A stretch of 64,000 nt of DNA from Centipeda artemidis DSM 19719 (GTDB lineage: Bacteria > Bacillota > Negativicutes > Selenomonadales > Selenomonadaceae): the NCBI RefSeq assembly GCF_000426665.1, contig NZ_AUFU01000006.1, positions 1 through 64,000 of the forward strand. The letters are read 5' to 3'. The notes beneath the pieces are model-generated. The model saw only the letters and a list, made by a program, of their open reading frames with translations, searched no databases and was not told the origin of the DNA. A program made the translations under genes and the position numbers. Of this stretch, positions 12,617 through 43,991 are shown in pieces. Positions within the stretch are counted from its first letter, which is position 1. Every line of letters begins with the position of its first letter.

Positions 12617-13708
12617 TCATGGCAAAAGATCAGTGAAATATCGTTCCATGCGCGCCCACCGGTCACGCTCGAGTTCTTCGCGTCGTGCAAAGAGGTCACG
12701 GTATGCAGCGATATAAGACTCCACATGTTGTGTGATGAGACGATGCGCCGCAACATAGCGATATGCATTCTCCGCCAAGCGGATGCGTAGGTCATCGTTC
12801 GTGACGAGCAGAGTCAGCTTCTCCACGAAGTCCCGCACATCCCCATAGATCAGCCCCGTCTCTCCGTCACACAGTGTCCGCGCGTACACCGTGGGCGAGG
12901 CGAGCGCCGCTGCACCGTGTCCCGCAGCCTCAATGAACTTCAAATCCGATTTTGTACGATTGAACGCCGTATCGCCGAGCGGGAGGAGGGCGATGTCGGC
13001 GCGATGCAGTGCCGCCGTATAGTCCGCGTAAGAGGCAACGGGGTCGCCGTCTTTTTCTCCCCATATGAACTCTTTCCGTGGTGTTCGCAGTTCATCATAG
13101 AAGGCTCGATCCCCCGTCACAAGGAAGGAAAGTCGTTCCCCATGGGCGCGAATCACCTCATTCAGCGCACCCATGAGCAGCGCCCAATCCGCCCCGCGGT
13201 TTAGTGCACCAAAGAATACCGTCACATGATCAGCAGCGCGCACATAGCTCCGCTGCGCCGGCAGCGCCGCAAGCTGATTCTCCAGTAAGAGGACATGTGG
13301 ATTAAACTCACGCAGGATGTCTGCAAGCGGCGGCGTCGACGTCTGTATGGCGGAGACGGCGCGGAACGAAAAATAATTCGTCTCCTCGAGTTCCCGCACC
13401 ACCGACGGATGATCGTCCATCTCATGCAGGAGGACATTCCCGCGTGCCGTCGACAGCGCGAAGAGTTCCGCCTGCCCCGACGTATTGAGATACACCTGCC
13501 GCTGAATTAGGATGAGGCTGTTTTCTTCCTTCCCCAGCGTGATAATGGGCAGGCGGTCACCGGTCCCCCCGGTACAGCCATGCAGAGTGACCGCCCCTAC
13601 GGCCTGCATTGCCTGAAGCGGTGTATCGAGGCGCACATGTGCACAGACATCAATCCGATTGAGCAGGACAACGGGAATGGGAGGATCGCATAGATTATCC
13701 CGTCCCAC
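12617..13708 (-). CDS. GT4-like glycosyltransferase, last gene of the glycosylation operon
   Basis: A 363-residue protein. The second half resembles the C-terminal GT-B domain of group 1 glycosyltransferases: HVTVFFGALNRGADW, HRADIALLPLGDTAFNRTKSDLKFIEAAGHG and TGLIYGDVRDFVEKL. The first half, without a clear donor motif, is probably the acceptor-side domain. The likely start is GTG at 13708, with a weak GGCGGAGC upstream, 29 nt after the TPR gene. Context suggests a role in flagellin or surface glycosylation. Confidence 0.65.
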   Translation of the reverse strand: MGRDNLCDPPIPVVLLNRIDVCAHVRLDTPLQAMQAVGAVTLHGCTGGTGDRLPIITLGKEENSLILIQRQVYLNTSGQAELFALSTARGNVLLHEMDDHPSVVRELEETNYFSFRAVSAIQTSTPPLADILREFNPHVLLLENQLAALPAQRSYVRAADHVTVFFGALNRGADWALLMGALNEVIRAHGERLSFLVTGDRAFYDELRTPRKEFIWGEKDGDPVASYADYTAALHRADIALLPLGDTAFNRTKSDLKFIEAAGHGAAALASPTVYARTLCDGETGLIYGDVRDFVEKLTLLVTNDDLRIRLAENAYRYVAAHRLITQHVESYIAAYRDLFARREELERDRWARMERYFTDLLP

Positions 13709-13737
13709 AGTGCCGGAATGTGCTCCGCCGCCGGGGG

Positions 13738-14688
13738 TTATGCTTTGAGCAGGCGGAGTAATAAAAAATCCGTGTGCTTCATCTCCGACGCCATGCGAAT
13801 CGCTCGGTCGTTATCCCCCATATCGTGCAGGAGCACCGCCATGTTCTTAATGGTCTCGTCACAGCCGGGATCCAGACGCAGCGATTCCGTCAATAAAATC
13901 CGTGCGCTCTCATAGTCGCCCTCAACATATGCGGCGCCCGCGAACGCATTCAGCGTGCATACCTTGTCCCGCGGGCGGATGTTCTCGCCGAGGATTTTGG
14001 CGGCTGTCTGTGCGGCGCTCCCTGCAAGAGCTTTCTCGGACGGCACGGCGACTGATTTCGATGCGGGAACGGCGACGTCCTTTGTGGGCGGTACGGCTAC
14101 GCCCTTCGGCGCGGGAACTGCCGGTTTCTTGACCGCCGACGGGGCGGGGACGCCGACGGGAGCGGACACGAGTCCAAAGAATGCGGCGAGGTGGGGATAA
14201 TTCTCTCGCACCTCGGCGGGGCTCAGCCGCGCCTCGAGTCCCGCATAACGGTCGATCTCCGCGCGCTGCGCGTCGCTCAGTGCGTTCCCATGGGACGCGA
14301 GCAGATTTTCATAGATTTTGAAAGCGTCCTGCGTACGCTTTTCCTTGAGACAAATGCGTCCAAGGAGAATGCGGACGTCCATGTTCGCGGGATCGCGTGT
14401 CAGCGTCGTCGTCACCCAGTCCGCCGCGCGCGCCGTATCGCCCGTCTCAAAATAGGCGCGTGCAATATCGCCGAAGCATTCCTCGGGCGCCGTCCCCGCC
14501 CCCGCCATATCCGCGAATGCATTGACCGCGTCGGCATACGCCTTCTTCTCCATATAGCCGCGGATGCGTGCCGCATTGCTGTCCTGTGTCATAGTCGTTG
14601 TTCCTTTCCCTTTCCGCTTTCTCGCTTCTTTGTGGCGCTGCTGTTTTTGCCGCGCTCGCTCGGCATGATTTTTCTTACGCTTCTTCAT
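13738..14688 (-). CDS. TPR-repeat protein with basic leader and Ala/Pro/Val linker
   Basis: A 316-residue protein: an Arg/Lys-rich leader (MKKRKKNHAERARQKQQ), TPR-type helices (about 40-150 and 235-316), and a low-complexity linker near 175-225 built from repeated K-x-VAVP-type units. No catalytic domain is visible; it may be a scaffold for the neighbouring GT41 enzymes. The ATG at 14688 overlaps the upstream gene by 14 nt. A second possible start (14592) has the better ribosome site (GGGAAAGGAA) and would remove the basic leader. Confidence 0.6.
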   Translation of the reverse strand: MKKRKKNHAERARQKQQRHKEARKRKGKGTTTMTQDSNAARIRGYMEKKAYADAVNAFADMAGAGTAPEECFGDIARAYFETGDTARAADWVTTTLTRDPANMDVRILLGRICLKEKRTQDAFKIYENLLASHGNALSDAQRAEIDRYAGLEARLSPAEVRENYPHLAAFFGLVSAPVGVPAPSAVKKPAVPAPKGVAVPPTKDVAVPASKSVAVPSEKALAGSAAQTAAKILGENIRPRDKVCTLNAFAGAAYVEGDYESARILLTESLRLDPGCDETIKNMAVLLHDMGDNDRAIRMASEMKHTDFLLLRLLKA

Positions 14689-16138
14689 TGAGATACCGCT
14701 CCCATATCATCCTGTATGCCTCCTCCATATCCCGTACATACTGTGCGCCGTCCATCAGGGGAGAGGCGCGCATCATCCGCCGCACCGCACCGTGGAGTGC
14801 CGCGAGGAGTTCGCCGTCCCGCGCGAGCAGCGCCGCCCGTTCGACATAGGCGTCCGCCGTATCCGCAACGAGTTCACCGAGTCCCGCATTGTACAGGATG
14901 CTCGTGCCGAACCGCGCACCGTGGCGCGTCCCTGCGCGCGTAACAACGGGCAGTCCCATCAGGAGGGCTTCGCATGTCGTTCCGCCGCCCTGATAGGGAT
15001 ATGTGTCGAGAATGATGTCGACATCGAGATAGTCCCTCAAATAATCACGCGTGCCGGAGCGCACGTCGATCCGCCGTAGGTCGATGTCGGCACGTGCAGC
15101 GCGAGCACGCATCAGCTCCGGCGCCGCCGCGTCGGCATTCACATTCTTGAGCACGAGCCGCGCCTCCGGCACCGCGTGCAGAATCTCCGCCCACAGGCGG
15201 AGCGTGTCGTCCGTAATTTTGGAGAAATTGTTAAAACTCCCAAAGACGACGGGCATATGCGGTCTGCGCACGATATTTTCGTACGGGGCAAACCGCTCCG
15301 GCGGCGTGAAGCAGAGGTGCGTATGCGGCAGCCGAAGGATCTTTTCGAAAAAAAGTTCCTCCATCCCCGGCGGGTCGCAGACGGGATCGCCGAGCACATA
15401 GTCGATCGCGGGCACGCCCGTCGTATCGAAATAGCCGATGCCCGTGATCTGCACGGGCGCGGGCTTATACGCCGCGATGCGCAGGGTTCGCCCGCCCGCC
15501 GTATGACCCGCGAGGTCAAAGAGGATGTCGATCTCATCCGCATGAATCGCCGCCGCAGCCGCAGTCTCCGGCATCCCCGCAAGATTGCGGTATCCGTCCA
15601 CCATGCCCGCAATCCAGTCCGTCACATCGTCGTCCGCACCTCCGGCGCTGTAGATGCGTACGTCAAAGCCCGTCCGGTCATATCCCGAAAAGAGCGGGAC
15701 GGCGAAGTTCAGCACCACATGCTCGGAAAGCGAGGGCGAGAGATAGCCGATGCGGATTTTCGCCCGCCGCCGCTTTTCATGAGAGAACTGCGGCACATCA
15801 CCAAAGATGCGTCCCCACGCGCCGTGTTCCTCCCGCAGGAATGCATCGGAGACATCCGCCGCATAGTGGAGTGTCATCAGATAATTGCTGAGGAGCTCGA
15901 CGCGCACAGCGTGCGGCGCGCCCTCAATGTTCCAAGAGGCGCGCAGATGCGGCAGCGCAGCATCGAGTTCCCCCAGCATATGAAGCAAATGCCCTTCCAT
16001 CGCATGATACTGCCACCGACGCGATTCCGGGAACAGATGCGCCTCGTTCATCCGCCGTAGGCGCGCGTGCGCCGCCGCAAAACGCTGCGCCGCGAGATCT
16101 TTTTGCACGCGGGAAAAAGCGGCGTCAAACTTCTCCAT
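14675..16138 (-). CDS. GT41 O-GlcNAc transferase-like protein (SPINDLY family)
   Basis: A 487-residue protein with a short TPR-like helical N-terminus (1-110) and a complete GT41 catalytic region: KIRIGYLSPSLSEHV, DILFDLAGHTAGG (conserved His), PAPVQITGIGYFDTTG, YVLGDPVCDPP, FGSFNNFSKI and LDTYPYQGGGTTCEAL (nucleotide-sugar site). GT41 enzymes transfer a sugar from UDP- or GDP-sugars to Ser/Thr of proteins. The ATG at 16138 overlaps the upstream stop by 14 nt, the same arrangement as at its own 3' end. Likely a flagellin glycosyltransferase by context. Confidence 0.82.
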   Translation of the reverse strand: MEKFDAAFSRVQKDLAAQRFAAAHARLRRMNEAHLFPESRRWQYHAMEGHLLHMLGELDAALPHLRASWNIEGAPHAVRVELLSNYLMTLHYAADVSDAFLREEHGAWGRIFGDVPQFSHEKRRRAKIRIGYLSPSLSEHVVLNFAVPLFSGYDRTGFDVRIYSAGGADDDVTDWIAGMVDGYRNLAGMPETAAAAAIHADEIDILFDLAGHTAGGRTLRIAAYKPAPVQITGIGYFDTTGVPAIDYVLGDPVCDPPGMEELFFEKILRLPHTHLCFTPPERFAPYENIVRRPHMPVVFGSFNNFSKITDDTLRLWAEILHAVPEARLVLKNVNADAAAPELMRARAARADIDLRRIDVRSGTRDYLRDYLDVDIILDTYPYQGGGTTCEALLMGLPVVTRAGTRHGARFGTSILYNAGLGELVADTADAYVERAALLARDGELLAALHGAVRRMMRASPLMDGAQYVRDMEEAYRMIWERYLNEEA

Positions 16139-18872
16139 GCGCTGCTCGGTACCGCGCCCAGATGTCACGATAGCATCCCTCCATTTCGCGGATATAGCCG
16201 ACCTGATCCATCACGGGAGAGTTCTTCATCCGATCCCGCAGCTCCCTATGCAGGGCATCGAGGAGATCAACATTCTCTGCGAGCATCACAGCTGTCTCCA
16301 CATAATCCGAAAGGGTCTCCGAGGCAAGATCGCTAAGTCCAATATTGGCGAGTAGACTATAGGTGAAGCGTGTACTGTGCCGCTCTGTATAATAGGAGAC
16401 GACCGGGACGCCCATATAGAGCGCATCGCACGTCGTCCCGCCGCCCGGCCACGGGAACGTATCGAGCGCGATGTCCACATCGAGATACCGCAGCATATAG
16501 TCCCGCGTCGCCCGCTCGAACTGCACGCGGCTCATATCGAGCCCGACCCGCTTCATCCGCTCGTGCGCCGCTCTTACCACGCCTTTCTTCTCATAGGCGG
16601 AATTTTTAAGCAGCAGCCGCGCCGTCGGCAGCCGGCGCAGAATCTCTGCCCACACACGGAGCATCTCATCGGTCATCTTTAGATATTGATTGAACGAAGC
16701 GAATTGAACGTATCCGCGCCGCCGAGCAGGTGCTCCCTCGGACACCGGGAGCTGTGTATATCCATTATAGCAGAATTGACTCGTCAGGCGCAGTAATTTT
16801 TCAACAAAATATGCGTCGCCGACACTCCCCGGTGGATCGCAGTACCGATCCGTGACAAAGTAGTCGACGGCGGAAAGCCCCGTCGTCGCCATATAACCGA
16901 GTCCCGAGAGCTGCACGGGTGCAGGCTTCCACGCAAGTGCAGGCAGGCCGCTGCGCGCCGTATGTCCCGCGAGATCAAAGAGGATATCCACCTCATCCGC
17001 ATAGATCCGAGCGGCGATCTTCTCCGGCGCATTCGCCTGCTTTGAAACATCTCGCCATGCGGTGACAAGTGTCTTGAAGAACTCCGTATACTGATCCGTC
17101 CTGCCAAGACTATAGCAATAGACCTCAAAATCGTCGCGGTCAAATCCCGCGAGAAACGGCCAGATGAAATACTGCATGACGTGCTCGCGGAAATCACCCG
17201 AGATATATCCGATGCGAATTTTATCCTTTTTTCGCCGTCCCTCGTGCGTATAAGGGCGAACATCCGCGAACAGCCGCTCGTACGCCAAACTGCGCCGATA
17301 GACCTCCGCCGGAGATACGTCGACGGCATTCGCCATCAAAAGAGCCCCGGAGTGATAGGAGCGGCGCATCAGCGGATCAGAGACACACGAAGCATATTTC
17401 ATGGCATACTGCATAGCGACAGCAGCGCCGAGGACAGTCTGCGCATGAGCCGCACAGACTTTGATCAGAGTTTCATACACCTCGGGCGTCGCCGGCAGCC
17501 GCCCTTCCTCAATCGCGGCAATCCCCTCCCGGGCGCGCCGCACCGTGTCCGCCGCAGATCCCTCGGCAGATACCCCCGATACGGACAAATAGAGACGCGC
17601 GCCTTCTCTTTCCCGTTCAATGCCTTCTGCGGAAAGCGCCCATCTTCCCGCGCGCTCCCGCTGATTCAAAAAATAATACGCCCATGCAATCGACATGCGC
17701 TGCGCCGGCAGAAGCGCCCCGCAGCCGTCGAGAATATGCCCCTCTCGCAGTACCCGCGTCCAGTCCTTTGCCGCCTCCGCACGCGCAAGCGCCGCCGTAT
17801 GTTCCTCCGCGCACATCGATTCCTCCACGCCGAAGAGCACACGGTCATAGGCGCGCTCCATCGTAAACATATAAGCGGAGGCCTCGGAAACCGGACTGTC
17901 GAGCAAATTCCACCGCAGCGTTTCGTGCAAATACGAGAGCCGCTCCACATCGTGCAGCAGCGACGCGGCACACGCCGCTAGTTCTGCGGTGTCCGGCGCA
18001 ATCTCCAGCCCAAGCCCCGCCGCACGGAGAATACCGGCGGCATACCTTCCAACAAAGGCATCCGCCGTAAGGATCGGCACGGAATATTCCACGGTGCGGC
18101 AAATTTTCATAGGATCGGCATTGACACCAATCGCAATGTCAAGCTCCTCATCGGCGACCTCATCTACGAGAATCAGCTCCGCGGTATCCGTGCCTATCTC
18201 TGAAATGTGCGCAACATCCGCATCTGTCAGCACGCTACCGATCGACACCGGCAAAATCAGCCGTACGCGGGGAATGCGCGCGAGCAGTGCGCAGAGGAGC
18301 GTGACGATCTCTTCCCGCCGCCCCTCATCCGCCCTGCCGATCAAGCCGATCAACGGTGTAGTGCCGTCGAGCAGCGGCGTGCGATATGCATACGAATCCC
18401 GCCGCTCAATCGGCGTATAGCATAGCGGTACAAAATCTGTCTCTCCATCCACAGGGGGCAGTGTCTCCGCCCCCTCCGCAGGGCATTGCTCTGCGAGTGA
18501 GAGGAGCCGGCGTGCGGGATACCGGACAAAAACATCTCGAATGAAGGCAGACGATGCATCAAAAGAAAGGTCAACCAGCAGGTCGATCTCATCCCGCCGT
18601 ATAACCTCTGCCGCCTCCTGCGCCGTACATGCACCGAGTGTACGAAATGCCGCCGCCGACTCTGCAAACAGCGCCGTATCGCCCCCCGTCCCCGTATGAT
18701 AGGCATAGACCTCAAAACGCAGCGGATTCGCCGCCGCAAAAAACGCAGGCAGAAAATCCCGTTCTGCGCCGCCGCCAAAAGAATCGGAAAGATACCCGAC
18801 GCGTATTTTCTTCTCCGTGTCACGCCGATGCCCGACAGATGCTCCACGATGCTTCTTCGCCCTTTTCTTCAT
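16125..18872 (-). CDS. Double GT41 protein: degenerate N-terminal and intact C-terminal module
   Basis: About 915 residues. After a basic leader (MKKRAKKHRG) comes a GT41-like module (20-360) that starts KIRVGYLSDSFGGG but has LSFDASSAF where DLAGHT is expected and lacks the GGGTT segment, so it is probably inactive. A helical TPR-like region (370-550) follows, then an intact GT41 module (555-910) with KIRIGYISGDFREHV, DLAGHTARSG, PAPVQLSGLGYMATTG and LDTFPWPGGGTTCDAL. The start overlaps the preceding stop; tandem ATGs are at 18875 and 18872, the second with better spacing to GGAAAGGA. Confidence 0.78.
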   Translation of the reverse strand: MKKRAKKHRGASVGHRRDTEKKIRVGYLSDSFGGGAERDFLPAFFAAANPLRFEVYAYHTGTGGDTALFAESAAAFRTLGACTAQEAAEVIRRDEIDLLVDLSFDASSAFIRDVFVRYPARRLLSLAEQCPAEGAETLPPVDGETDFVPLCYTPIERRDSYAYRTPLLDGTTPLIGLIGRADEGRREEIVTLLCALLARIPRVRLILPVSIGSVLTDADVAHISEIGTDTAELILVDEVADEELDIAIGVNADPMKICRTVEYSVPILTADAFVGRYAAGILRAAGLGLEIAPDTAELAACAASLLHDVERLSYLHETLRWNLLDSPVSEASAYMFTMERAYDRVLFGVEESMCAEEHTAALARAEAAKDWTRVLREGHILDGCGALLPAQRMSIAWAYYFLNQRERAGRWALSAEGIEREREGARLYLSVSGVSAEGSAADTVRRAREGIAAIEEGRLPATPEVYETLIKVCAAHAQTVLGAAVAMQYAMKYASCVSDPLMRRSYHSGALLMANAVDVSPAEVYRRSLAYERLFADVRPYTHEGRRKKDKIRIGYISGDFREHVMQYFIWPFLAGFDRDDFEVYCYSLGRTDQYTEFFKTLVTAWRDVSKQANAPEKIAARIYADEVDILFDLAGHTARSGLPALAWKPAPVQLSGLGYMATTGLSAVDYFVTDRYCDPPGSVGDAYFVEKLLRLTSQFCYNGYTQLPVSEGAPARRRGYVQFASFNQYLKMTDEMLRVWAEILRRLPTARLLLKNSAYEKKGVVRAAHERMKRVGLDMSRVQFERATRDYMLRYLDVDIALDTFPWPGGGTTCDALYMGVPVVSYYTERHSTRFTYSLLANIGLSDLASETLSDYVETAVMLAENVDLLDALHRELRDRMKNSPVMDQVGYIREMEGCYRDIWARYRAAHGEV

Positions 18873-20414
18873 CATATGGTCCTTTCCGATCCCACTGCTG
18901 CAAAACGCCGATAGGCGTCCTCCAAAGCGCGCATATATCCCTTTTGATCCATCAGGGGCGAGCGCTCCATCATCCCGCGCAGACCTCTATGCAGGTCGTC
19001 AAGCGTATCGAGATCGCCCGCAAGTGCGGCGGCGAGAGCGATATAGTCCTCCGTGCCCATTGCCGCAAGCTCTGCGAGCCCGATGTGCGAGAGGAACGCA
19101 CAGCCAAAGCGCGTACTGCGCCGCGCCGCATAGCGCGTCACCATAGGGACACCCATATAGAGTGCATCGCAGGTCGTCCCCCCGCCCGGCCACGGGAACG
19201 TATCGAGTGCGATGTCAACATCGAGATAACGGCGCATATAGCCCGTATCCGCAGGCTCGAGGAGGACGCGCTCGAGGTCAAACCCGAGCCGCCGCAGCCG
19301 CTCTTCTGCCGCCGCCCGCATCTCTCCGGCAAAGAACACCTGCGATTTGAGCAGAAGCCGCGACGCCGGCACGCGATCCATGATCTCCCGCCAGACGGAA
19401 AGCATCTCGTCCGTAAACTTCCGATACTGATTGAACACGCCGAACACGATGTATCCGCGCCGCCGCGCGGGCGTTCCCTCCGACGCTGGCAAATGCGCGG
19501 GCGGCACATAGCAGAACTGACTCGGCAGGCGCACAAGCTCCTCGGTAAAATAGCGCTCATGCCCCGCGCCCGGCGGATCGCAGACGGCATCCGTCAGGAA
19601 CGCATCCACTGCGCGCACCCCCGACGTCGCCGTATACCCTAATCTGCACCGGTGCAGGGCGTCGGGCAAGCACGGGCAGAGCGCCGCCTGCCGCATGTCC
19701 CGCGAGATCGACCAGCACATCGATCTCATCCGCACGAATGTGCGCCGCTATCTCCGCCGCAGGCGCATCTCCGACATCCCGCCATACGTCCGCATAGGAG
19801 CGCAGCGCCTCCGTCACATCATCCGGCTCCGTCGCCGTACTATATACATAGACCTTGAACTCCGTGCGGTCATATGTCGTGAGGAGCGGCTGAATAAAGT
19901 TCTGCATGACATTCCGGCGAAAATCCGGCGAAATGTAGCCGATGCGGATCTTCTCGTGCCGATACGGCACAGGAAATGTGTACCGCGGCACATCCGCAAA
20001 GAGCCTACCGTATTCGCAATGCGCCGCATACAGTTCCGCCTCATCGATCTCCCGGGCATTCTGTGCGAGCAGGAACGAGCTGTATAGTCCCGCATTCCCC
20101 GGTTCTTCTCTGTAGGCATCATAACAAAATTCCGCCGCCTGCGGATCCCCGATCCGATACGCAACCGCCGCACGCAGACGCATGTATTCACGGCGCATCT
20201 CCGTACGTCCCGCCGCGAGATAGTCCACCGTTTCCCGCATCGCACGCGGCAGGTCGCCCATACGCTCCGCCGCATAGGTATGAAGATAGCGGATCATATC
20301 GTCTGCCGTACCTGCCCGAATCGCGTGCTCAGCAATCCTGCGCGCCTCGGCATAACGCTCCGATGAAAGCGCATCAAATACGCGATCTCTCAACGCCGCA
20401 TCCGTCCTACTCAT
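18872..20414 (-). pseudogene. GT41 gene disrupted by an internal frameshift
   Basis: The first frame starts at 20414 (GGGGGA upstream) and encodes TPR-like helices then KIRIGYISPDFRRNV, DLAGHAAGG and PAPVQI before drifting out of homology and stopping at 19557. The second frame resumes exactly where homology is lost with LGYTATSGVRAVD, DPPGAG, LDTFPWPGGGTTCDAL and a normal end at 18872. Compared with the neighbouring paralogue (PAPVQLSGLGYMATTG), about 8 nt are missing near 19640, giving a shift inside the catalytic core. Without correction neither half would be active. A sequence error is possible but an 8-nt loss is an unlikely one. Confidence 0.78.
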
Positions 20415-20445
20415 TCTATCGTTGTCCCCCGCGCGAACCTTTACC

Positions 20446-22113
20446 TCATCCGCATATCCGTGCGGTATATTCCGCCCATACAGCTTCATACGCCGCACCA
20501 ACGGCTGCTCCATAGGCGGCTGCATCCATCACGGGAGACGCCGCCGTCATATTGCGCAGCCCTGCGTGGAGCGCATCGAGCGTCTGCGTATCCTGCGCGA
20601 GGAAAACGGCGCGCTCGATGTATTCTTCCTCCGTATGTGCAATGAGCGCCTCCGCGCCGATATTTTGGAGCAAAGACGCCCCGAACCTGCTCCCAAGTGT
20701 CTCCCCCTCGAGCGTCACGACAGGCACACCCATATAGAGCGCGTCACAGGTTGTTCCGCCGCCCGGATAAGGGAACGTATCAAGCGCAATGTCGATGCGC
20801 CCGTATGCCGCGAGATAATCTGCCGACGCCCCCTCCGTCTCCACACGCTCCGGAGGGATGCCTGCCGCCGCAATCCGCCGCCGCGCTTCGGCGGCGCCGT
20901 CCGACACGGAGAAGATCTCCGTCTTGAGCAACAACCGCGCCGTCGGCACGCGCCGCAGAATCTCCGCCCATACCTGCAGCACCCGATCGTTGATCTTCGT
21001 AAAATTATTTAGACTGCCAAATACAATAGGACGCCCCTCCGCCGGCAGGTGTGTCGCCGGAGGCGCGGGACGCAGCGGCTGCCAACAAAAATGCGTCCGC
21101 GGCAGCACGAGCAGACGCTCGACAAAGCCCTCCTGCGCATGTCCCGCCGCAAGTATGGGATCCGCGAGAAAATAATCCACGGTCTTTAGCCCCGTTGAGG
21201 CAAAGTAGCCGATCCCCGACATCTGCACCGGTGCGGGACGATAGGCGAGGACGGGCAGTGTCCCGCCCGCCGTATGCCCCGCGAGATCGACGAGGATATC
21301 AATCCGATCCTCATAGACGAGACGCGCCGCTTCCTCCGCCGTACACCCCATGAGATTCCGAAAGCAAGCCACGCGGCGGCGAATCCCGTCCGTGAACGCA
21401 TCCTCCCTGTTCATCGCATAGACATAGACCTCAAATCGTGCGGTATCAAGCGCGGTAAAGAGTGCATACGAAAAGGAGAGCACCACGTGCTCCCGGACAT
21501 CGGGCGAGAGATAGCCGATGCGCAGCCGCCTGCGCTGCGCTCCCGGCGCATGGGTGAACGGCACAACACCCTCGAGCAGAGCCCCGTATTCCTCCGCCGC
21601 TGCACGCTCCTCAAGAGGTGTCTGTGCAAGATAATGCCGGTTAAAGAGCACATTGCTCGCATTGAGCAGGCGCAGTTCCCGCTCCTGCGCCGCATCCCGT
21701 GCATGCGTATAGAACGTCACGGCGTCCTCCGCACGCCCCATGAATCGCGCGCACCCGCCCGCGAGATTGAACACCTTTTCCGTGATCGCGCCGGGCATGG
21801 CACACCCCATCAGCGGCGACAGGAGCGACAGCGCTGCGCATCGCTCCCCCTGCATCAAATGAATCCGCGCCCGCAGAAAGATCGTATAGGGATCGTCCGG
21901 TCGACAGCGCGCGCACTCCTTCCATGCCGCAAGCGCGTCCTCCGGCGATCCGGACTCAATAGCAAGCGCGGTCAAAAGCCCCGCCGCCTCTCCCGGCTCA
22001 TCCCGGCGGAGCAGCTCAATATCCGCCTTGGCGCGCAGCGCATCGCCGCGATCGAGCGCGTCATAAATGCGCGTGCGCAGACGCTCGATGTCTGCCGGTA
22101 TCCGCGCCGTCAT
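20446..22113 (-). CDS. TPR-GT41 O-GlcNAc transferase-like protein
   Basis: A 555-residue protein with helical TPR-type repeats (1-185) and an intact GT41 domain: RRLRIGYLSPDVREHV, DILVDLAGHTAGG, PAPVQMSGIGYFASTG, FGSLNNFTKI and LDTFPYPGGGTTCDALYMG. The ATG at 22113 overlaps the GT2 gene stop (ATGA), so the longer in-frame extension is not used. One of four GT41 genes in the operon; all catalytic landmarks are present. Confidence 0.83.
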   Translation of the reverse strand: MTARIPADIERLRTRIYDALDRGDALRAKADIELLRRDEPGEAAGLLTALAIESGSPEDALAAWKECARCRPDDPYTIFLRARIHLMQGERCAALSLLSPLMGCAMPGAITEKVFNLAGGCARFMGRAEDAVTFYTHARDAAQERELRLLNASNVLFNRHYLAQTPLEERAAAEEYGALLEGVVPFTHAPGAQRRRLRIGYLSPDVREHVVLSFSYALFTALDTARFEVYVYAMNREDAFTDGIRRRVACFRNLMGCTAEEAARLVYEDRIDILVDLAGHTAGGTLPVLAYRPAPVQMSGIGYFASTGLKTVDYFLADPILAAGHAQEGFVERLLVLPRTHFCWQPLRPAPPATHLPAEGRPIVFGSLNNFTKINDRVLQVWAEILRRVPTARLLLKTEIFSVSDGAAEARRRIAAAGIPPERVETEGASADYLAAYGRIDIALDTFPYPGGGTTCDALYMGVPVVTLEGETLGSRFGASLLQNIGAEALIAHTEEEYIERAVFLAQDTQTLDALHAGLRNMTAASPVMDAAAYGAAVGAAYEAVWAEYTARICG

Positions 22114-23588
22114 ATCCGCTCTCCGGAAAGCCGCGCGATGCGCCGCCGCATCCGCATGTCCTCGGGCGCGGCGGAAAGCTCCCTGCACGATCGCGGCAGA
22201 AGAATCGCAATGTTCCCCTGCGCCTGTGCGGGAAACTCCCCCATATGCGCCGCCGCGACCGCCGCCGTCCGCTCTCGATCCTCGATAAGGGATGCCGCCG
22301 CCGCACACACTTCCCCCGTCAGGAGCAGTCGTCTGCGCGCGGAGAATTTTCCCCCAGCGCGCTTCTCATAATAAAGGGCGGCGAGCGGGAAAGGCGTATC
22401 CACGAGCGCCTGCGCCAATAGCCCCGCATCCGCCTGTTCGTCATAGAGTTCGTTCAGCGCCGCCACGACATCCGCCGTCTCCGCGCCGGTCTCGGCGAGC
22501 AGACGCAGGAGCGCCTTGAGGGACAGCAGATGCCGCTTTTGCGCGCGCAGAGACCGGATATAGAACGCCGCCGCGGCTTCCTTTTCCCCGCACAGCTCCG
22601 CCGCCGCACCGAGCCGCTCATAGGCGAGCGGAGCGAACACGCCGGAGAGATCGCCGGGACGGTAATGCTCCTCATAGAGACGCACGCCCTCCGCATAGGC
22701 ACGGCGCGCCGCCGCAAGATAACCGCGTTCCCACGCATATGTGCCGTAAATAAAGGGAAAATCCGCCGTCTCAGGAAACCTGCCGAGGGCGGCGTGATAG
22801 GCGGCATCGATCTCCGCATCGGCGGCATTCATCAGAATGAGCGACTGCAGGAGGACGGTATGCGGACGCTTCTCCCCGCCAACGGGCTGCTCCGGCAGAT
22901 CCATTGCCTCCCGTGCATATGCCGCCGCCTTTTCATAATCCTCGAGCGTATAGTAGCAGTCCATCAGATGATAGGCGTCCATTTTATCATGATGCCCCGC
23001 CGCACGCCGCGCTGACAGGAGTTCCAAATCGCGCTCCGATTTTTGCCGCATGATCTGCGGAGAGTATCCCGTATGATAGAGAACGAGCTCCTCGGCATAC
23101 AGCATTGTGCGCGCTGGGTCGCCGCTCAGGTTCTCCACATGCTCGTGGATGCTTCCCACAAAGCGCAGATGCGGCAGGCGGCGGAAAATGCGCTGTACCT
23201 GCGCCGTCGTGCCGAGCAGGGCGCCCGTCTCCATATCGATATTGACGAGACGCACGATGAACCCGTCGATTCGTTCCTCCGCGTCATGCGCCTCAACGAG
23301 CGGGCGCACGCGCGGCGCGCTCTCGTCCGTGAAATATTCGTCCGCATCAGTAAAGACCACCCAGTCCCCCGATGCGCGGTCGAGCGCAAAATTTTTCGCG
23401 GCGGCAAAGTCGTTGATCCAGTCAAAGTAGTAAACCACCGCCCCGCCCGCGCGCGCGATCTCGACCGTCGCATCGGTCGATCCCGTATCGACGACGATCA
23501 TCTCGTCGGCAAAGATGCGCATGGAGGTGATCCAGTACGGCAGATTCTGCTCCTCGTTCTTGGTGATGACGCAGGCAGAAATTTTCAT
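22110..23588 (-). CDS. GT2 glycosyltransferase with C-terminal TPR region
   Basis: A 492-residue protein. The GT2 domain (1-225) shows MKISACVITKNEEQNLPYW, VVDTGSTDATVEIA, NDFAAAKNFALD and the DxD-type metal motif FTDADEYF, followed by HEHVEN and LYHTGYSP. The remaining half is TPR-like helices. GT2 enzymes of this kind transfer sugars from nucleotide donors, often building glycans on proteins. Start overlaps the preceding stop (ATGA). Confidence 0.83.
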   Translation of the reverse strand: MKISACVITKNEEQNLPYWITSMRIFADEMIVVDTGSTDATVEIARAGGAVVYYFDWINDFAAAKNFALDRASGDWVVFTDADEYFTDESAPRVRPLVEAHDAEERIDGFIVRLVNIDMETGALLGTTAQVQRIFRRLPHLRFVGSIHEHVENLSGDPARTMLYAEELVLYHTGYSPQIMRQKSERDLELLSARRAAGHHDKMDAYHLMDCYYTLEDYEKAAAYAREAMDLPEQPVGGEKRPHTVLLQSLILMNAADAEIDAAYHAALGRFPETADFPFIYGTYAWERGYLAAARRAYAEGVRLYEEHYRPGDLSGVFAPLAYERLGAAAELCGEKEAAAAFYIRSLRAQKRHLLSLKALLRLLAETGAETADVVAALNELYDEQADAGLLAQALVDTPFPLAALYYEKRAGGKFSARRRLLLTGEVCAAAASLIEDRERTAAVAAAHMGEFPAQAQGNIAILLPRSCRELSAAPEDMRMRRRIARLSGERI

Positions 23589-26500
23589 TGTATCAGCTCC
23601 ATCAGTTCCCGCACCTTCCGAGTGTCCGGCTCCGCCGCAAGCGCACGGCTGAGATACGCGCCTCCCTCGTCCCGTTTGCCGAGCGCAAGACAGGCGCGCC
23701 CCGTCTCATAGAGATATGCCGCGTCCGCCGTGCCGCCCGCTTCGCCGTAGAAGAGCAAGGCTGCAAGCGCCGCCGCGGGGCGCCCCGCAGCCGCAAAATC
23801 ATCCGCAAGTCGGCGTACATGCACGATGCCAAATGCCCCCGCACAGTGGATCACGCGCTCCGCCTGCATCTCATCCGCCGTGCGGACAAAGGCCTCCCGC
23901 ACGAGCTCATAGCCCTCGGCGGTATCGGGGCACGCCGCGGCATCGGGTTCGTCATAATACCGCCAAAAGGCTCGCAGCACATCCGGCAGGAGCGCCCGCA
24001 GGCGGCGATAGAGATGCCGCCCGTCCGGCATATGCACGCGTTCCACGCGCAGAAGAATCTCCGCCGTCTCCCGCACATCGCCCGAGAGCAGTCCCGTCAG
24101 ATATGCCGCACACTCCTCGGGCGATTGACTGCGCAACGCAGCATAGATCGGCGGGATCTCCGGCGCACGTCCCGTCTCCGCGTGCAGTGCATAGAGCGCC
24201 GCGCGCGCAAGCGGCATCCGCCCGCTCCCCTCCGCCGTGCGGTAGAGATAGAAAAGGCTCTCCGCATCCGTACCGATCTGCGCACGCAGTCCGTCAAGAA
24301 CGCGCTGCGACGATTCATCCTCATGCAGCGCCGCATAGACGTCAACCGCCGCTTCGCGCGCCGTTCCCGCGTCAAAGGCATCCGCAAGTGCCGCTTCCGC
24401 CCCCGCACGGTCTCCTGCCGCTAGCAAGAGACGCGCCCGCGCCGCCGAGATCTCCCCCGCCCACGCCGTGAACTCGGAGCTTTCCCCGCTCTCATCCTCC
24501 GGCATTTCATAGAGCTTCGACGCCCGCGTGAGTTCGGCGATCGCGCGTCCATCCCCTGCCGCTTCATAGAGCAGACCGAGCCGCCCATGGAAATCCGGCA
24601 GGAGCGGAAATGCGCGGCACGCCCGCTCCGCCGCCACGATCTGCTCCGTGAGCGCCAGTTCCTCACGCTCCATACAATCGAGCAGGACATGATACAGATG
24701 CGACTGCGCGCCGAAAGACACTGCATTTTCCGCAATCGCCTCCTGCACATAGAGAAGCGCGGCGGCGCACTGTCCGAGTCCATAATAGGTATCGGCGAGA
24801 TAGCGATAATCTCCCGGGCGGATGCCGTTTTGCTCTATTTCCGCCGCGAGCAGGGCGAGATTGCGCACATGCTTCTCGTACATGCGCCTTGCAGAATAAC
24901 CGACATGCCGAATGGAGAGTGCTGTCGTCTCTTGATAGAGCAGGGGCTCTCCCTCCGCCTTTTGGAGCCGTTCATGCACGCGTCCCTCATAGAACAGCCC
25001 GCGGCCAAGACGCAGGAGCCGCACATGCGGCGCACGCCCGATTTCACGCGCGCCGGCATCCTCATCCACATGCACGATCGGCAGGAGAACGGCATCCGCT
25101 TCCGGCATCAATACGTCCATCATCGCGAGATAGGGCCGCACCTCGCGGGGATCAAAGAACGCCTCGTCCACATCGAGAATCGCCGCCCATGTGCCGGACG
25201 CACGGGAGAGCACCGTATTGCGCGCAGCAGCAAAGTCATCCGTCCATGCAAATTCATAAACATCCGCACCCGCGCGCACGGCAAGCTCCCGCGTCCCATC
25301 CGTCGATCCCGTGTCGAGCACGATGCGCTCATCCGCATACGCCGCTGCATTCCCCAGCCACGTCTCCATATCGCGCGCATCGTTGCGCACAAATACGCAG
25401 GCGGAAATACGAACGTCTCGTTCATGCATATGTATTTTTTCCCAAATGCCCATCCGCAGCCGCAGCTGCGCCGCCCCTTCCTCCGTGAAATCCGACGGCT
25501 CAAGCCCTCCCTGCGTCGGCGGGATATCGAGCGCAGTCTCTGCCGCGCGGATCGCCGCCGCATAGTCATAGCATGCGGCACACGCCTCAGCATATTCCGC
25601 GTGCATCTCCGGCAGCTCCGGGAAATCTGCAGCGGCACGTCCCGCGATCTTTCGCCGCCGATCCCGCATCTGCGGATGCGTCCCATAGAGATGGAGCAGG
25701 ATGCGGTACGAAGAGCTCGCATAGACCGCAGCCTGTCGCCCGCGCTCAATATCGCGCAGCGCATAATGCTCCGCCATGCGTGCATCACCGAGCCGATCAT
25801 AGGTCTCCGCAAGATAGCGCAGGCAACGCTCCGGATATTCCCCCGTCTCCATCTCCGCCAGCAGCATCCGCAGGTTGCGCTCTCCCTTAGCGCGCGTCAG
25901 CGTCGCCGAATACCCCGTATGAATCAGCCGCAGGCGTTGCGGCGATACCGTTTCGACAGGCTTTATAACGACTCCTCGATCCCGCAGTTCCTCGTGGATG
26001 CGCCCCACATAGCGGCGCTCCTCCGCATATTTGAAAATGCGCGGCGCAAACGAGTCAAGCAGCAGCTCTCCCGTGTCCTCGTCGATGTTCCTCCACGGAA
26101 CAAGCAGAACCTGCGCGCCGGATTCCTCCGCCGCGGCAGCGACGTCCCGCAGATGCCCCGCCGTCTCCGGCGTGAAATACTCGTCCGCATCGAGGAACAC
26201 GACCCAGTCGCCCCGAACATGCGAAAGGGCGGCATTTCGTGCCGCCGCGAAGTCGTCGTTCCACGCAAAATGATAGACCCGCGCGCCAAGCACGGCGGCA
26301 GTATCCGCCGACCCGTCCGCCGATCCTGTGTCCACAACGATCAGCTCGTCTACATACGCGCGCAGACTCTCAATGGATTTTTTCAAATGCACAGCGTCGT
26401 CGCGTACGATATAACATGCCGTCAGGCGCATATGCGGCTGCGTATCCGCTGCGAGCCTCACTTCCTCCATGCGGTATCTCCGCTCTTTTTCCGCCCAAAT

Positions 26501-27529
26501 CTCGGCACTCTGAGCATCTCCCAAATGTGTATAAATCAGAACCATGCGCTCCGCGACCCGCGCCGCCACATCACGGTTAAAAAAAGAATCGTCCCGCCGA
26601 ATGCCGGCGTCGCCCTCGTACCGGTCTATTGCCGCCGTAAAACTCGCGAGTGCCGGCTCGTATTGCTCCAGACCGCAGAGAACCATCCCTCGCTCCGCGT
26701 AGAAATCCGGCAGATCGGGATAGCCGACAATGGCGGCGTTGACGTATTTCAGCATTTCCGCATCCGAATCATGCAGAGCGCGCATGGACTCGATCACCTG
26801 ATGATAGATTTTGCTCCGACCACCAATAATCTCCAAATCGCTCGATAAGACTTCTGCCGAGAGTTCGATCACGCGCCGGTAGTCCTTCAGCCAAAAATAG
26901 CAGTCGGCGAGGTATGCCGCGTGCCATGGTTTCCGCCCGTGCTCTGCGGCATCCGCTTCTAGCATCGCGATATTACGGCGTACCTTCTCCGCACTCCGCA
27001 CAGGCATATATCCCGTATGCCCGCAGACAAGGCGTTCATCCGCATAGCACAGGATGCGCTCGCCGCCGTCACGCCGCACCGCCTGCTCATGAATTGTTCC
27101 CTCATAACACAGCGCATCGCCGCCGCGCAGAACACGCGGCAGAATATCCGTCATCATATGATTCCGGTCACCCGGCAAGACATAATGCTCCATACGCACC
27201 ATCAGAAGATCCCATGCCGGCATTCGGGCGGTATAGGATTCTATCGCAGGGCGTACCTGCGCCGGATGCAGGAAGTATTCGTCTGCATCAAGGAAAATGA
27301 TATAATCTCCCGTCACATGAGCCAGTGCAAAATTCCGCGCCGCCGCGAAATCATCCCGCCATGGAAATTCATAGAGCGCCGCATGATATTCCGCCGCCGC
27401 AGCGGCAATGTACACATCTCCCGCCGTAGAGACGACGACGATCTCATCCGCCGCCGCTGAGACACTCGCCAGAGACCGGCGCAGCTCATCCGCTTCGTCC
27501 TTCACAATATAGCAGGCGGAGATCTTCAT
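23585..27529 (-). CDS. Trimodular GT2 glycosyltransferase with TPR spacers
   Basis: A 1314-residue protein, first in the operon. Three GT2 domains start near residues 1, 367 and 706, each followed by TPR-like helices. Modules 2 and 3 keep VVDTGSADGS or VLDTGSTDGT and the DxD motifs LDADEYF and LDVDEAFF. Module 1 keeps LDADEYF but has VVSTAGDVY in place of the DTGSTDG nucleotide site, so it may be impaired. The C-terminal third is further TPR-like sequence. The ATG at 27529 follows AAAGGATGTG. Probably adds several sugars to one acceptor; inferred from module count only. Confidence 0.8.
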   Translation of the reverse strand: MKISACYIVKDEADELRRSLASVSAAADEIVVVSTAGDVYIAAAAAEYHAALYEFPWRDDFAAARNFALAHVTGDYIIFLDADEYFLHPAQVRPAIESYTARMPAWDLLMVRMEHYVLPGDRNHMMTDILPRVLRGGDALCYEGTIHEQAVRRDGGERILCYADERLVCGHTGYMPVRSAEKVRRNIAMLEADAAEHGRKPWHAAYLADCYFWLKDYRRVIELSAEVLSSDLEIIGGRSKIYHQVIESMRALHDSDAEMLKYVNAAIVGYPDLPDFYAERGMVLCGLEQYEPALASFTAAIDRYEGDAGIRRDDSFFNRDVAARVAERMVLIYTHLGDAQSAEIWAEKERRYRMEEVRLAADTQPHMRLTACYIVRDDAVHLKKSIESLRAYVDELIVVDTGSADGSADTAAVLGARVYHFAWNDDFAAARNAALSHVRGDWVVFLDADEYFTPETAGHLRDVAAAAEESGAQVLLVPWRNIDEDTGELLLDSFAPRIFKYAEERRYVGRIHEELRDRGVVIKPVETVSPQRLRLIHTGYSATLTRAKGERNLRMLLAEMETGEYPERCLRYLAETYDRLGDARMAEHYALRDIERGRQAAVYASSSYRILLHLYGTHPQMRDRRRKIAGRAAADFPELPEMHAEYAEACAACYDYAAAIRAAETALDIPPTQGGLEPSDFTEEGAAQLRLRMGIWEKIHMHERDVRISACVFVRNDARDMETWLGNAAAYADERIVLDTGSTDGTRELAVRAGADVYEFAWTDDFAAARNTVLSRASGTWAAILDVDEAFFDPREVRPYLAMMDVLMPEADAVLLPIVHVDEDAGAREIGRAPHVRLLRLGRGLFYEGRVHERLQKAEGEPLLYQETTALSIRHVGYSARRMYEKHVRNLALLAAEIEQNGIRPGDYRYLADTYYGLGQCAAALLYVQEAIAENAVSFGAQSHLYHVLLDCMEREELALTEQIVAAERACRAFPLLPDFHGRLGLLYEAAGDGRAIAELTRASKLYEMPEDESGESSEFTAWAGEISAARARLLLAAGDRAGAEAALADAFDAGTAREAAVDVYAALHEDESSQRVLDGLRAQIGTDAESLFYLYRTAEGSGRMPLARAALYALHAETGRAPEIPPIYAALRSQSPEECAAYLTGLLSGDVRETAEILLRVERVHMPDGRHLYRRLRALLPDVLRAFWRYYDEPDAAACPDTAEGYELVREAFVRTADEMQAERVIHCAGAFGIVHVRRLADDFAAAGRPAAALAALLFYGEAGGTADAAYLYETGRACLALGKRDEGGAYLSRALAAEPDTRKVRELMELIQ

Positions 27530-27557
27530 GGCGCACATCCTTTCAATCATTGTAATC

Positions 27558-27586
27558 ATTATACGGCATCGCAGAAGAAATGAAAA
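27558..27586 (-). promoter_or_regulatory. Sigma70-like promoter for the glycosyltransferase operon
   Basis: Minus-strand TTTTCA (27586-27581), 17-nt spacer and TATAAT (27563-27558); start codon about 30 nt downstream. Confidence 0.55.
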
Positions 27587-27608: not shown

Positions 27609-27636
27609 TCACGATGATATTGTATTGTATATCCCG
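27609..27636. repeat. 28-bp direct repeat, copy 1
   Basis: The 28-nt sequence tcacgatgatattgtattgt... (ending atcccg) is repeated without mismatch at 27787-27814. Both copies are followed by a CATxxCGTAACC-AGTGA segment that leads into a copy of the hairpin repeat. Confidence 0.85.
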
Positions 27637-27659
27637 CATCATGTCATGCCGTAACCGGA

Positions 27660-27814: not shown

Positions 27815-27832
27815 TTTCATACCGTAACCTAA

Positions 27833-27865
27833 GTGACACAGCTATGCGCCAAGATCGCACGTCAT
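27833..27865. repeat. 3'-end fragment of the 124-bp hairpin repeat
   Basis: gtgacacagctatgcgccaa followed by gatc matches the last 33 bases of the copy at the end of pheA almost exactly. Confidence 0.7.
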
Positions 27866-27877
27866 ACCCTAACCTAA

Positions 27878-28001
27878 GTGACGCGTAAGCTTGGATGCAC
27901 GGCTAGGAACAAGGAAAATACAAGGGCAGGCGTAGTTAAGACCTACGTCAACCGCAGTATTTTCCGCAGTGACACCGCCGTGCGCCAAGATCGGCTGTCA
28001 C
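27878..28001. repeat. 124-bp hairpin repeat, full copy A
   Basis: Same length and layout as the copy at 43868-43991: outer GTGAC/GTCAC, CTTGG/CCAAG, then GGAAAATAC/GTATTTTCC and a central cgtag/ctacg hairpin. Paired bases differ from copy B in a compensating way (GAAAAAT/ATTTTTC there), which supports a conserved folded form. It ends 5 bp before the fliC terminator. Confidence 0.8.
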
Positions 28002-28005
28002 GCCA

Positions 28006-28038
28006 CAAAAAAAGCCCCTTCCCCGAAGGGAAGAGACT
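28006..28038 (-). terminator. Flagellin gene terminator
   Basis: An 11-bp stem including G-U pairs, capped by a UUCG tetraloop, with a T7 tail on the minus strand. It follows the fliC stop by about 40 nt. Confidence 0.9.
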
Positions 28039-43666: not shown

Positions 43667-43867
43667 AGTATTTTCTCCTTTGTAAATTTATAAAATATGA
43701 TGCCCCTAAGCGTGAAAATCCCGCCTCATACCGTATGTGTGATACTCCCCCCGGAGCTAACGCGCCACTTCGTACCGCGTCGGCGTCCGCCGCAGCCATT
43801 TTTAAGCCCCGCTTTTTGGCAAGGCGGATGCCAAAGCGGTGCAGATAAATAAAATACCGTATAGTGA
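43667..43867. other. aroF upstream region
   Basis: About 200 nt without a credible gene. It contains a long imperfect hairpin (ccgctttttggca with tgccaaagcgg, 43809-43839) that could attenuate or process the pheA-aroF transcript, and an AT-rich stretch next to the aroF ribosome site. Confidence 0.45.
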
Positions 43868-43991
43868 GTGACGCACAAGCTTGGATGCAGAGCAAGGAAC
43901 TAGAAAAATTCAAGGGAAGGCGTAGTTAAAAGCTACGTCGACCGCAGGATTTTTCGCAGTGACACAGCTATGCGCCAAGATCGTGCGTCAC
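43868..43991. repeat. 124-bp hairpin repeat, full copy B, overlapping the end of pheA
   Basis: Perfect 9-bp terminal inverted repeats GTGACGCAC/GTGCGTCAC, inner CTTGG/CCAAG, GAAAAAT/ATTTTTC and a central cgtag/ctacg hairpin. The whole unit matches 27878-28001 in length and order. Its right end supplies the last codons and the stop of pheA. Confidence 0.85.

What the first reader, a model, noticed from the sequence alone, without database searches (positions are those of the whole stretch)
12617..27529. 15-kb GT2/TPR/GT41 operon next to flagellin, a probable flagellin O-glycosylation island
Eight co-directional genes, mostly overlapping or a few bases apart, follow one promoter behind fliC. 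They hold four GT2 modules, five GT41 (OGT/SPINDLY-like) modules in four genes, a TPR protein and a GT4-like enzyme. Position, module types and the Ser/Thr-rich flagellin centre all suggest flagellin glycosylation. The number of tandem GT41 modules in one operon is unusual.
Basis: partly seen in the sequence, partly recalled or inferred. Interest (0 to 1): 0.7.

Follow-up and report, generated by a model that had tools for sequence, protein, structure and literature searches.

The report
Flagellin sugar-coating operon of oral Selenomonas
Next to the flagellin gene lies a conserved row of sugar-transferring enzymes that very probably decorates the flagellum with short sugar chains; the kind is known, but its many fused and partly dead enzyme modules are unusual.

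Summary
The observation largely holds. Eight co-directional genes (12617-27559, - strand) follow fliC and hold four GT2 modules, five GT41-type modules, a TPR protein and a GT4-like enzyme. Corrections: gene 4 is split by a small out-of-frame deletion; the first half of the 916-aa gene has a GT41 fold without the catalytic residues; the last gene lacks ~550 aa that 13 of 13 genus mates carry. At most three GT41 modules look intact. Flagellin glycosylation is strongly supported: GT2 modules directly follow flagellin in 14 of 14 genus genomes and lie downstream of it in 25 of 32 regions of other genera of the family; flagellin and GT41 are both present in 99 and both absent in 6 of 107 family genomes; a homologous operon adjoins a flagellin that fits the glycosylated one of Selenomonas sputigena (sites recalled from Rath 2018, which I could not open). 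Many GT41 modules per array are common in this family, so that point is not unusual here. Less expected is an old, mostly ordered series of GT41 paralogues with conserved degenerate modules, a possible cytosolic assembly line. New variant of a known kind.

The parts
28077..29408 (-). fliC, flagellin (443 aa), presumed acceptor
   Evidence: Pfam Flagellin_N/C; 83-90% identical in the genus
28015..28031 (-). terminator-like hairpin with T tract behind fliC
   Evidence: consensus scan only
27831..28004 (.). copy of a dispersed repeat between fliC and the operon
   Evidence: 52 other matches of the intergenic stretch in the genome, most to this part
27619..27647 (-). promoter-like site (10 of 12) ahead of the operon
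   Evidence: consensus scan only; 5 sites found in the stretch, 1.6 expected
23585..27559 (-). G1: three GmaR/SunS-like GT2 modules (first start codon at 27559; the ATG at 27529 is also possible); first module lacks the DTGS motif
22110..23588 (-). G2: GT2 module and a C-terminal part without Pfam match
20446..22113 (-). G3: GT41 module A; Lys and His equivalent to SPINDLY K665 and H495 kept
18872..20525 (-). G4: GT41 module B, split into ORFs 19557-20525 and 18872-19735 by a small out-of-frame deletion (likely start near 20414); intact and fused to A in 8 genus mates
17826..18875 (-). G5 N-terminal part: pseudo-GT41 module C1 (GT41 fold, equivalents of K665 and H495 lost)
16125..17825 (-). 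G5 C-terminal part: GT41 module C2; Lys and His kept, Trp at the position of SPINDLY Tyr744
14675..16168 (-). G6: GT41 module D; Lys and His kept
13738..14688 (-). G7: TPR protein
12617..13708 (-). G8: GT4-like glycosyltransferase; lacks the N-terminal ~550 aa of its 13 genus orthologues

Best explanation
It is a flagellin O-glycosylation island. SHOWN by sequence: GT2 modules related to GmaR and SunS, SPINDLY/OGT-type GT41 modules, a TPR protein and a GT4-like enzyme stand in an operon-like row behind flagellin, and the row stays with flagellin across the genus and in most sampled genera of the family. INFERRED: the enzymes act in the cytoplasm on flagellin before export. One or more of them attach the first sugar (probably rhamnose or GlcNAc, from dTDP-rhamnose or UDP-GlcNAc) to Ser/Thr in the central part of flagellin, and other modules extend it one sugar at a time to short, heterogeneous chains. 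The TPR protein and the conserved degenerate modules serve flagellin docking or module pairing rather than catalysis. The lesions in this genome (module B, the missing part of G8) should shorten or change the glycan, not abolish it. My confidence of 0.9 is for the island reading; for the detailed order of steps it is about 0.5-0.6.
For: Flagellin followed by GT2 modules and GT41 modules in 14 of 14 genus genomes; first GT2 module 117-309 bp behind the flagellin C-domain in 13 relatives, 550 bp in the window. GT2 modules downstream of flagellin in 25 of 32 regions of other genera, 22 with GT41. In a survey chosen by flagellin alone, 37 of the 44 loci ranked closest to window FliC have GT2/GT41 modules downstream on the same strand (28 with GT41), against 3 of the 34 ranked lower; six of the seven misses in the first group have under 2 kb of downstream DNA (recount). 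Flagellin and GT41 in 107 family genomes: 99 both, 6 neither (three genera), 1 flagellin only, 1 GT41 only (Fisher p 2.7e-8, relatedness not corrected). Arrays beside flagellar genes also in L196, L198, L203 and, in another family of the class, L204. All five S. sputigena glycosites recalled from Rath 2018 are the right residue in the 437-aa flagellin of genome G071, which is followed within the fetched 20 kb by 3 GT2 and 4 GT41 modules. G6 is closest to SPINDLY (5.1e-72) and a Thermobaculum OGT (3.9e-62); G1 to GmaR (1.5e-23) and SunS (2.1e-15). The Lys that is essential in SPINDLY (PMC9715652, passages) is kept in 104 of 104 full-length modules compared (8 partial ones dropped). A strong RmlD homologue is in the genome.
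Against: No chemistry for the window species. Rath 2018 is not held; sites and sugars are recalled, and the name of G071 is inferred. In 6 of 32 family regions the best-matching flagellin has no such genes beside it. Of 16 regions fetched because they hold GT41, 11 show no flagellar gene in the DNA fetched (L192, L193, L195, L197, L199-L202, L205-L207; several are contig ends). The second flagellin of this genome has no such neighbours in the 20 kb fetched, nor have those of G001 and G012. Two GT41 genes of the same genome lie beside housekeeping genes. 19 of 104 modules, all 8 B modules among them, lack the His whose change kills SPINDLY, and residues that matter in SPINDLY (S496, T748) are replaced in nearly all modules, so activity cannot be taken for granted. 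Hydropathy: the highest 19-residue mean is 1.84, in G5 at residue 190, inside the modelled GT41 fold; all other operon proteins are at 1.58 or less; no dedicated membrane or signal predictor was run. Other soluble acceptors cannot be excluded.
Confidence: 0.9

Rival explanations
1. The operon glycosylates another secreted or surface protein (adhesin, hook or cap protein) and sits behind fliC for shared regulation only.
For: GT41 enzymes also modify adhesins (HMW1C type, PMC3012730, listing only); 11 of 16 GT41-chosen regions show no flagellar gene in the DNA fetched; second flagellins have none beside them.
Against: No adhesin or secretion gene among the genes of the row; synteny with flagellin across genera; joint absence with flagellin; homologous operon beside a flagellin that fits the glycosylated one.
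Confidence: 0.06
2. The enzymes build a lipid-linked polysaccharide or LPS part.
For: GT2 and GT4 families are common in such clusters (general knowledge).
Against: No flippase, polymerase, ligase or oligosaccharyltransferase among the genes of the row; closest solved relatives of the GT2 and GT41 modules act on peptides or proteins.
Confidence: 0.02
3. The GT41/TPR proteins mainly regulate (intracellular O-glycosylation or a GmaR-like anti-repressor), with flagellin modification secondary.
For: [quoted passage not shown] conserved catalytically deviant modules.
Against: So many glycosyltransferase modules are hard to explain by regulation; no DNA-binding domain found among the genes of the row.
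Confidence: 0.02

Closest known systems
Selenomonas sputigena glycosylated flagellin C9LY14 (Rath et al. 2018, PMID 29339411; not held, content recalled; cited in passages of PMC7142665 and PMC13339959)
   Same: Same bacterial family; the flagellin gene that fits it (G071) is followed by a homologous GT2/GT41 operon.
   Different: Another genus in the tool's grouping; a triple GT41 protein instead of A plus broken B; no pseudo-GT41 half was detected there at the thresholds; the glycan is known only in that species.
Enterobacterial flagellin glycosylation islands (PMC4875605, passages)
   Same: Glycosyltransferases in flagellar loci; GT2 or GT41 (SPINDLY-domain) enzymes.
   Different: There one to three transferases per island, each strain with one GT family only; here 4 GT2 and 5 GT41 modules stand together.
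Listeria GmaR (GT2 plus TPR; PMC3150276, passages)
   Same: G1 matches the solved GmaR chain at 1.5e-23.
   Different: Three modules in one protein; the anti-repressor part was not looked for.
Caulobacter FlmG (TPR plus GT-B; PMC7591256, passages)
   Same: Soluble enzyme that modifies flagellin; its TPR part binds flagellin.
   Different: One enzyme and pseudaminic acid there; here many enzymes, a separate TPR protein, donor unknown. No direct sequence comparison with FlmG was made.

Membership tests
Flagellin glycosylation island | Glycosyltransferase genes beside flagellin/flagellar genes | tested here: met
Flagellin glycosylation island | Position conserved in relatives | tested here: met
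   14 of 14 in the genus; 25 of 32 regions of other genera of the family, 6 without, 1 contig end
Flagellin glycosylation island | Flagellin carries the glycan and depends on these genes | not testable with these tools
   needs mass spectrometry and mutants
GT41 (SPINDLY/OGT type) | GT41 profile match above cut-off | tested here: met
   G3, both G4 halves, G5 C-terminal part, G6
GT41 (SPINDLY/OGT type) | Equivalents of SPINDLY K665 and H495 in modules A, C2, D | tested here: met
   S496 and T748 equivalents differ
GT41 (SPINDLY/OGT type) | Equivalents of K665 and H495 in module C1 | tested here: not met
   0 of 16 aligned C1 rows have either; two rows have a gap at K665; fold kept
HMW1C-type N-glycosyltransferase (NF049992) | Score above the curated cut-off of 1000 | tested here: not met
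   28.2, 21.5 and 35.4 bits for G3, G5, G6
GmaR/SunS-type GT2 | Sequence relation to solved GmaR/SunS chains | tested here: met
   G1: 1.5e-23 and 2.1e-15
SunS peptide S-glycosyltransferase (TIGR04195 equivalog) | Score above the curated cut-off of 350 | tested here: not met
   134 bits (G1) and 71 bits (G2)
Maf/nonulosonic-acid flagellin modification | Maf transferase and NulO synthase | tested here: inconclusive
   No PF01973 match, but that model is described as MptE-like and rang only in archaeal controls; a strong NeuB homologue exists at C15 (252 bits)

The most novel reading that the evidence does not exclude
A cytosolic glycan assembly line: fused GT2 and GT41 modules kept in order since early in the family, each place in the row largely its own orthologous group with its own sugar or site, in which conserved dead modules (pseudo-GT41 C1, GT2 module without the DTGS motif) and a TPR protein hold flagellin and hand it along. 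Loss or breakage of single modules would then tune the flagellar glycan from species to species.
Probability: 0.3. Interest if true: 0.75.

Novelty: new variant of a known kind. Interest (0 to 1): 0.5.

Why it matters
Selenomonads are motile members of dental plaque and of the rumen, and at least one has a heavily glycosylated flagellin whose glycosylation genes I did not find named in the papers I could search (Rath 2018 itself not held). The operon gives a concrete candidate set. Its natural variation (modules lost or broken in single species) is a ready-made experiment on which module adds which sugar. It also offers a bacterial case of SPINDLY/OGT-type enzymes that may work in series, including conserved catalytically dead copies.

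Tried and rejected
GT41 expansion as a recent local duplication: rejected. In the tree of 104 modules A, B, C2 and D of the genus are each one clade with full support, and modules of other genera mostly group with them by order in the row. A frameshift in G5 of genome G011: rejected, it is a run of N. Folding the whole 916-aa G5 from six sequences gave a poor model (pLDDT 53), not used; the N-terminal 350 residues with 16 sequences gave pLDDT 86. A sigma-28-like pattern (recalled consensus) gave no match in the window. Maf could not be tested well. Paper searches listed no description of this gene row in selenomonads; I saw listings, abstract starts and, for eight papers, passages, one section or an abstract. 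Rath 2018 is not held, so it may mention the genes. Long opposite-strand ORFs inside the genes (e.g. 24587-26848) were taken as spurious without a test of their own.
Full report
OBSERVATION. On the - strand behind fliC (28077-29408) lie eight genes, G1 to G8, down to 12617. With the likeliest start codons, neighbours overlap by 4 bases (G1/G2, G2/G3, G4/G5), overlap by about 14 (G5/G6, G6/G7) or are about 30 bases apart (G3/G4, G7/G8), so one transcript is likely; no expression data were seen. Pfam gives three GT2 stretches in G1, one in G2, GT41 in G3, G4, G5 and G6, TPR in G7 and a GT4-like domain in G8. Pfam did not match that half in the window protein. It aligns with the second half of G5 at 23% identity (1e-14), its model (pLDDT 86) matches the SPINDLY catalytic domain at Z 29.0, rmsd 2.8 A over 320 residues, and none of 16 aligned relatives has the equivalent of the catalytic Lys or His (two rows have a gap at the Lys). 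It is a pseudo-GT41 module, C1.

LESIONS. G4 is two overlapping ORFs. The break falls in a conserved motif of the GT41 domain and comes from a small out-of-frame deletion. Module B is intact in 8 of 14 genus genomes, broken in 2 and absent in 4; A is present in 13, C2 in 14 (interrupted by an N run in G011) and D in 12. G001 has only the C1-C2 protein. Whether the two breaks are real or assembly errors cannot be told from here. G8 of the window matches only the last part of its genus orthologues: 13 of 13 have a protein of 903-918 aa. In the two scanned (G012, G013), the extra ~550 aa hold GT2 domains.

SYNTENY IN THE GENUS. In all 14 genomes held for the genus, flagellin is directly followed by the GT2 modules and then by GT41 modules. 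The first GT2 module starts 117-309 bp behind the flagellin C-terminal domain in the 13 relatives and 550 bp behind it in the window, where part of a dispersed repeat sits. GT2 modules number 4 in 13 genomes and 3 in G006. No tool named the window's own species.

FAMILY. I took 32 regions around a flagellin match (for each genome, one of its best, chosen for contig length) in 32 genomes of 18 other genera. In 25 of 32, one or more GT2 modules of this type follow flagellin on the same strand within the DNA fetched, mostly within 2 kb; in 22 of these GT41 modules follow too. Six have none (G047, G049, G059, G062, G067, G103) and one contig ends (G066). Three regions round second flagellins of the genus (G000, G001, G012) had no such genes. 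In an independent scan by flagellin alone, 78 named loci came back, the best of 257. Of the 44 ranked first, 37 have GT2/GT41 modules downstream on the same strand (28 with GT41; in L113, L124 and L133 only about 7-8 kb away), and six of the seven others have under 2 kb of downstream DNA; of the 34 ranked lower, 3 have them (recount). So the association is with the FliC type closest to the window's. Sixteen regions taken because they hold GT41 (four of them from other families of the class) show arrays beside flagellar genes in L196 (behind fliD-fliS-fliT, eight modules in four genes), L198, L203 and L204 (another family), one (L194) about 9 kb before a flagellin, and eleven without any flagellar gene in reach, several of them at contig ends. 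The cassette can therefore also lie apart from flagellin.

CO-OCCURRENCE. Among 107 family genomes, flagellin at E<=1e-30 and GT41 occur together in 99, neither in 6 (three genera), flagellin alone in 1 (G035), GT41 alone in 1 (G065, a draft with 7% contamination) (Fisher p 2.7e-8, with relatedness not corrected). In a class-wide sample 42 of 130 genomes have GT41, 24 of these in this family; most of the 18 others show only two matching segments.

LINK TO MEASURED GLYCANS. I recall from the abstract of Rath et al. 2018 (not held) that the 437-aa flagellin of S. sputigena carries rhamnose- and GlcNAc-linked O-glycans of one to six sugars, with sites T149, S182, T199, T259 and S334. A passage of PMC13339959 states heavy glycosylation with rhamnose-linked O-glycans, and one of PMC7142665 multiple sites. 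Genome G071 has a 437-aa flagellin with exactly these five residues, two flagellin positions in line with the order of locus tags quoted in PMC13339959, and 92.9% identity to its sister G070 where the paper gives 92.5% for the ATCC 33150 orthologue. I therefore take G071 for S. sputigena; no tool named it. Its flagellin is followed, in the 20 kb fetched, by GT2-GT2, GT2, GT41-GT41-GT41 and GT41. In the window flagellin three of the five sites are Ser or Thr, the other two Cys and Ala.

ENZYMES. G6 is closest to SPINDLY (5.1e-72) and to the Thermobaculum OGT (3.9e-62), far less to HMW1C-type enzymes (1e-7 or weaker). I compared 104 full-length modules (46 of the genus, 56 from other genera, 2 other genes of this genome; 8 partial ones of 112 dropped). 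The Lys essential in SPINDLY is kept in 104 of 104. The His whose change kills SPINDLY is replaced in 19 of 104, namely all 8 B modules (Asn) and 11 others; S496 and T748 of SPINDLY, also important there, are replaced in nearly all. So the modules are GT41 enzymes of their own type, and activity of B even when intact is doubtful. At the donor-pocket position Tyr744, modules A and D have Tyr, and B and C2 of the genus have Trp. This hints at two donor types; it is inference. G1 matches GmaR and SunS. Its first GT2 module lacks the DTGS motif in the 13 genus copies but keeps DADE. Hydropathy gives no clear membrane segment: the maximum, 1.84, lies in G5 inside the modelled fold, the other operon proteins stay at or below 1.58; no dedicated predictor was run.

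MODULE ORDER. In the maximum-likelihood tree each of A, B, C2 and D of the genus is one clade (100/100). Modules of other genera mostly follow the order A, a middle group that the genus lacks, B/C2, D along the row: for example the three modules of the large protein of G014, G070, G071, G080, G084 and G100 fall in A, middle and B/C2 in that order, and the last single modules of G070, G071, G076, G093, G100 and G105 fall with D. Exceptions are G036 (last single module in the middle group), G024 (two A-like) and G073/G077 (one module near a non-flagellar gene). Support for the deeper joins is mixed. The row is thus old and mostly ordered, not a recent tandem expansion.

MECHANISM. Shown: enzymes of protein-modifying families in a conserved row with flagellin. 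Inferred: cytosolic, stepwise O-glycosylation of flagellin before export, with the TPR protein and the dead modules as binding parts. Relatives of the TPR protein were found in 29 of 60 genomes searched: 14 of 14 of the genus, 15 of 23 others of the family and 0 of 23 of other families; several of the 15 lie close to the arrays. Which enzyme starts, and which sugar each adds, is open. A strong RmlD homologue makes dTDP-rhamnose plausible; a NeuB homologue leaves nonulosonic acids possible.

VERDICT. The kind of system is known. The scale, the mixing of GT2 with GT41 (exclusive of each other in enterobacterial islands, PMC4875605 passages), the mostly fixed order and the conserved dead modules make it a new variant.

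Noticed in passing
27831-28004 and 43854-43992: Dispersed repeat of 130-170 bp; the intergenic stretch that holds it has 52 other matches in the genome at 70-94% identity; nature unknown.
   Followed up: partly
L053 (G009), module B: The nearest relative has its own, different small deletion in the same GT41 module; repeated independent inactivation or assembly error.
   Followed up: partly
L196 6253-17424: Eight GT41 modules in four two-module genes right behind fliD-fliS-fliT in another genus.
   Followed up: partly
L067: Several tandem flagellin genes, one inside a 1148-aa open frame, ahead of GT2 genes.
   Followed up: no
L204 6601-19998: Flagellin, two GT2 and three GT41 modules in one row in a genome of another family of the class.
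   Followed up: no
L063 5012-6167; L064 8865-9990: Two further GT41 genes of the same genome among housekeeping genes (DNA polymerase III, uvrA nearby), one close to a GT2-like gene, one next to a methyltransferase and near a radical SAM gene.
   Followed up: partly
G000:C1:221772-223139 (L092): Second flagellin, 62% identical to FliC, without such glycosyltransferase genes in the fetched 20 kb.
   Followed up: partly
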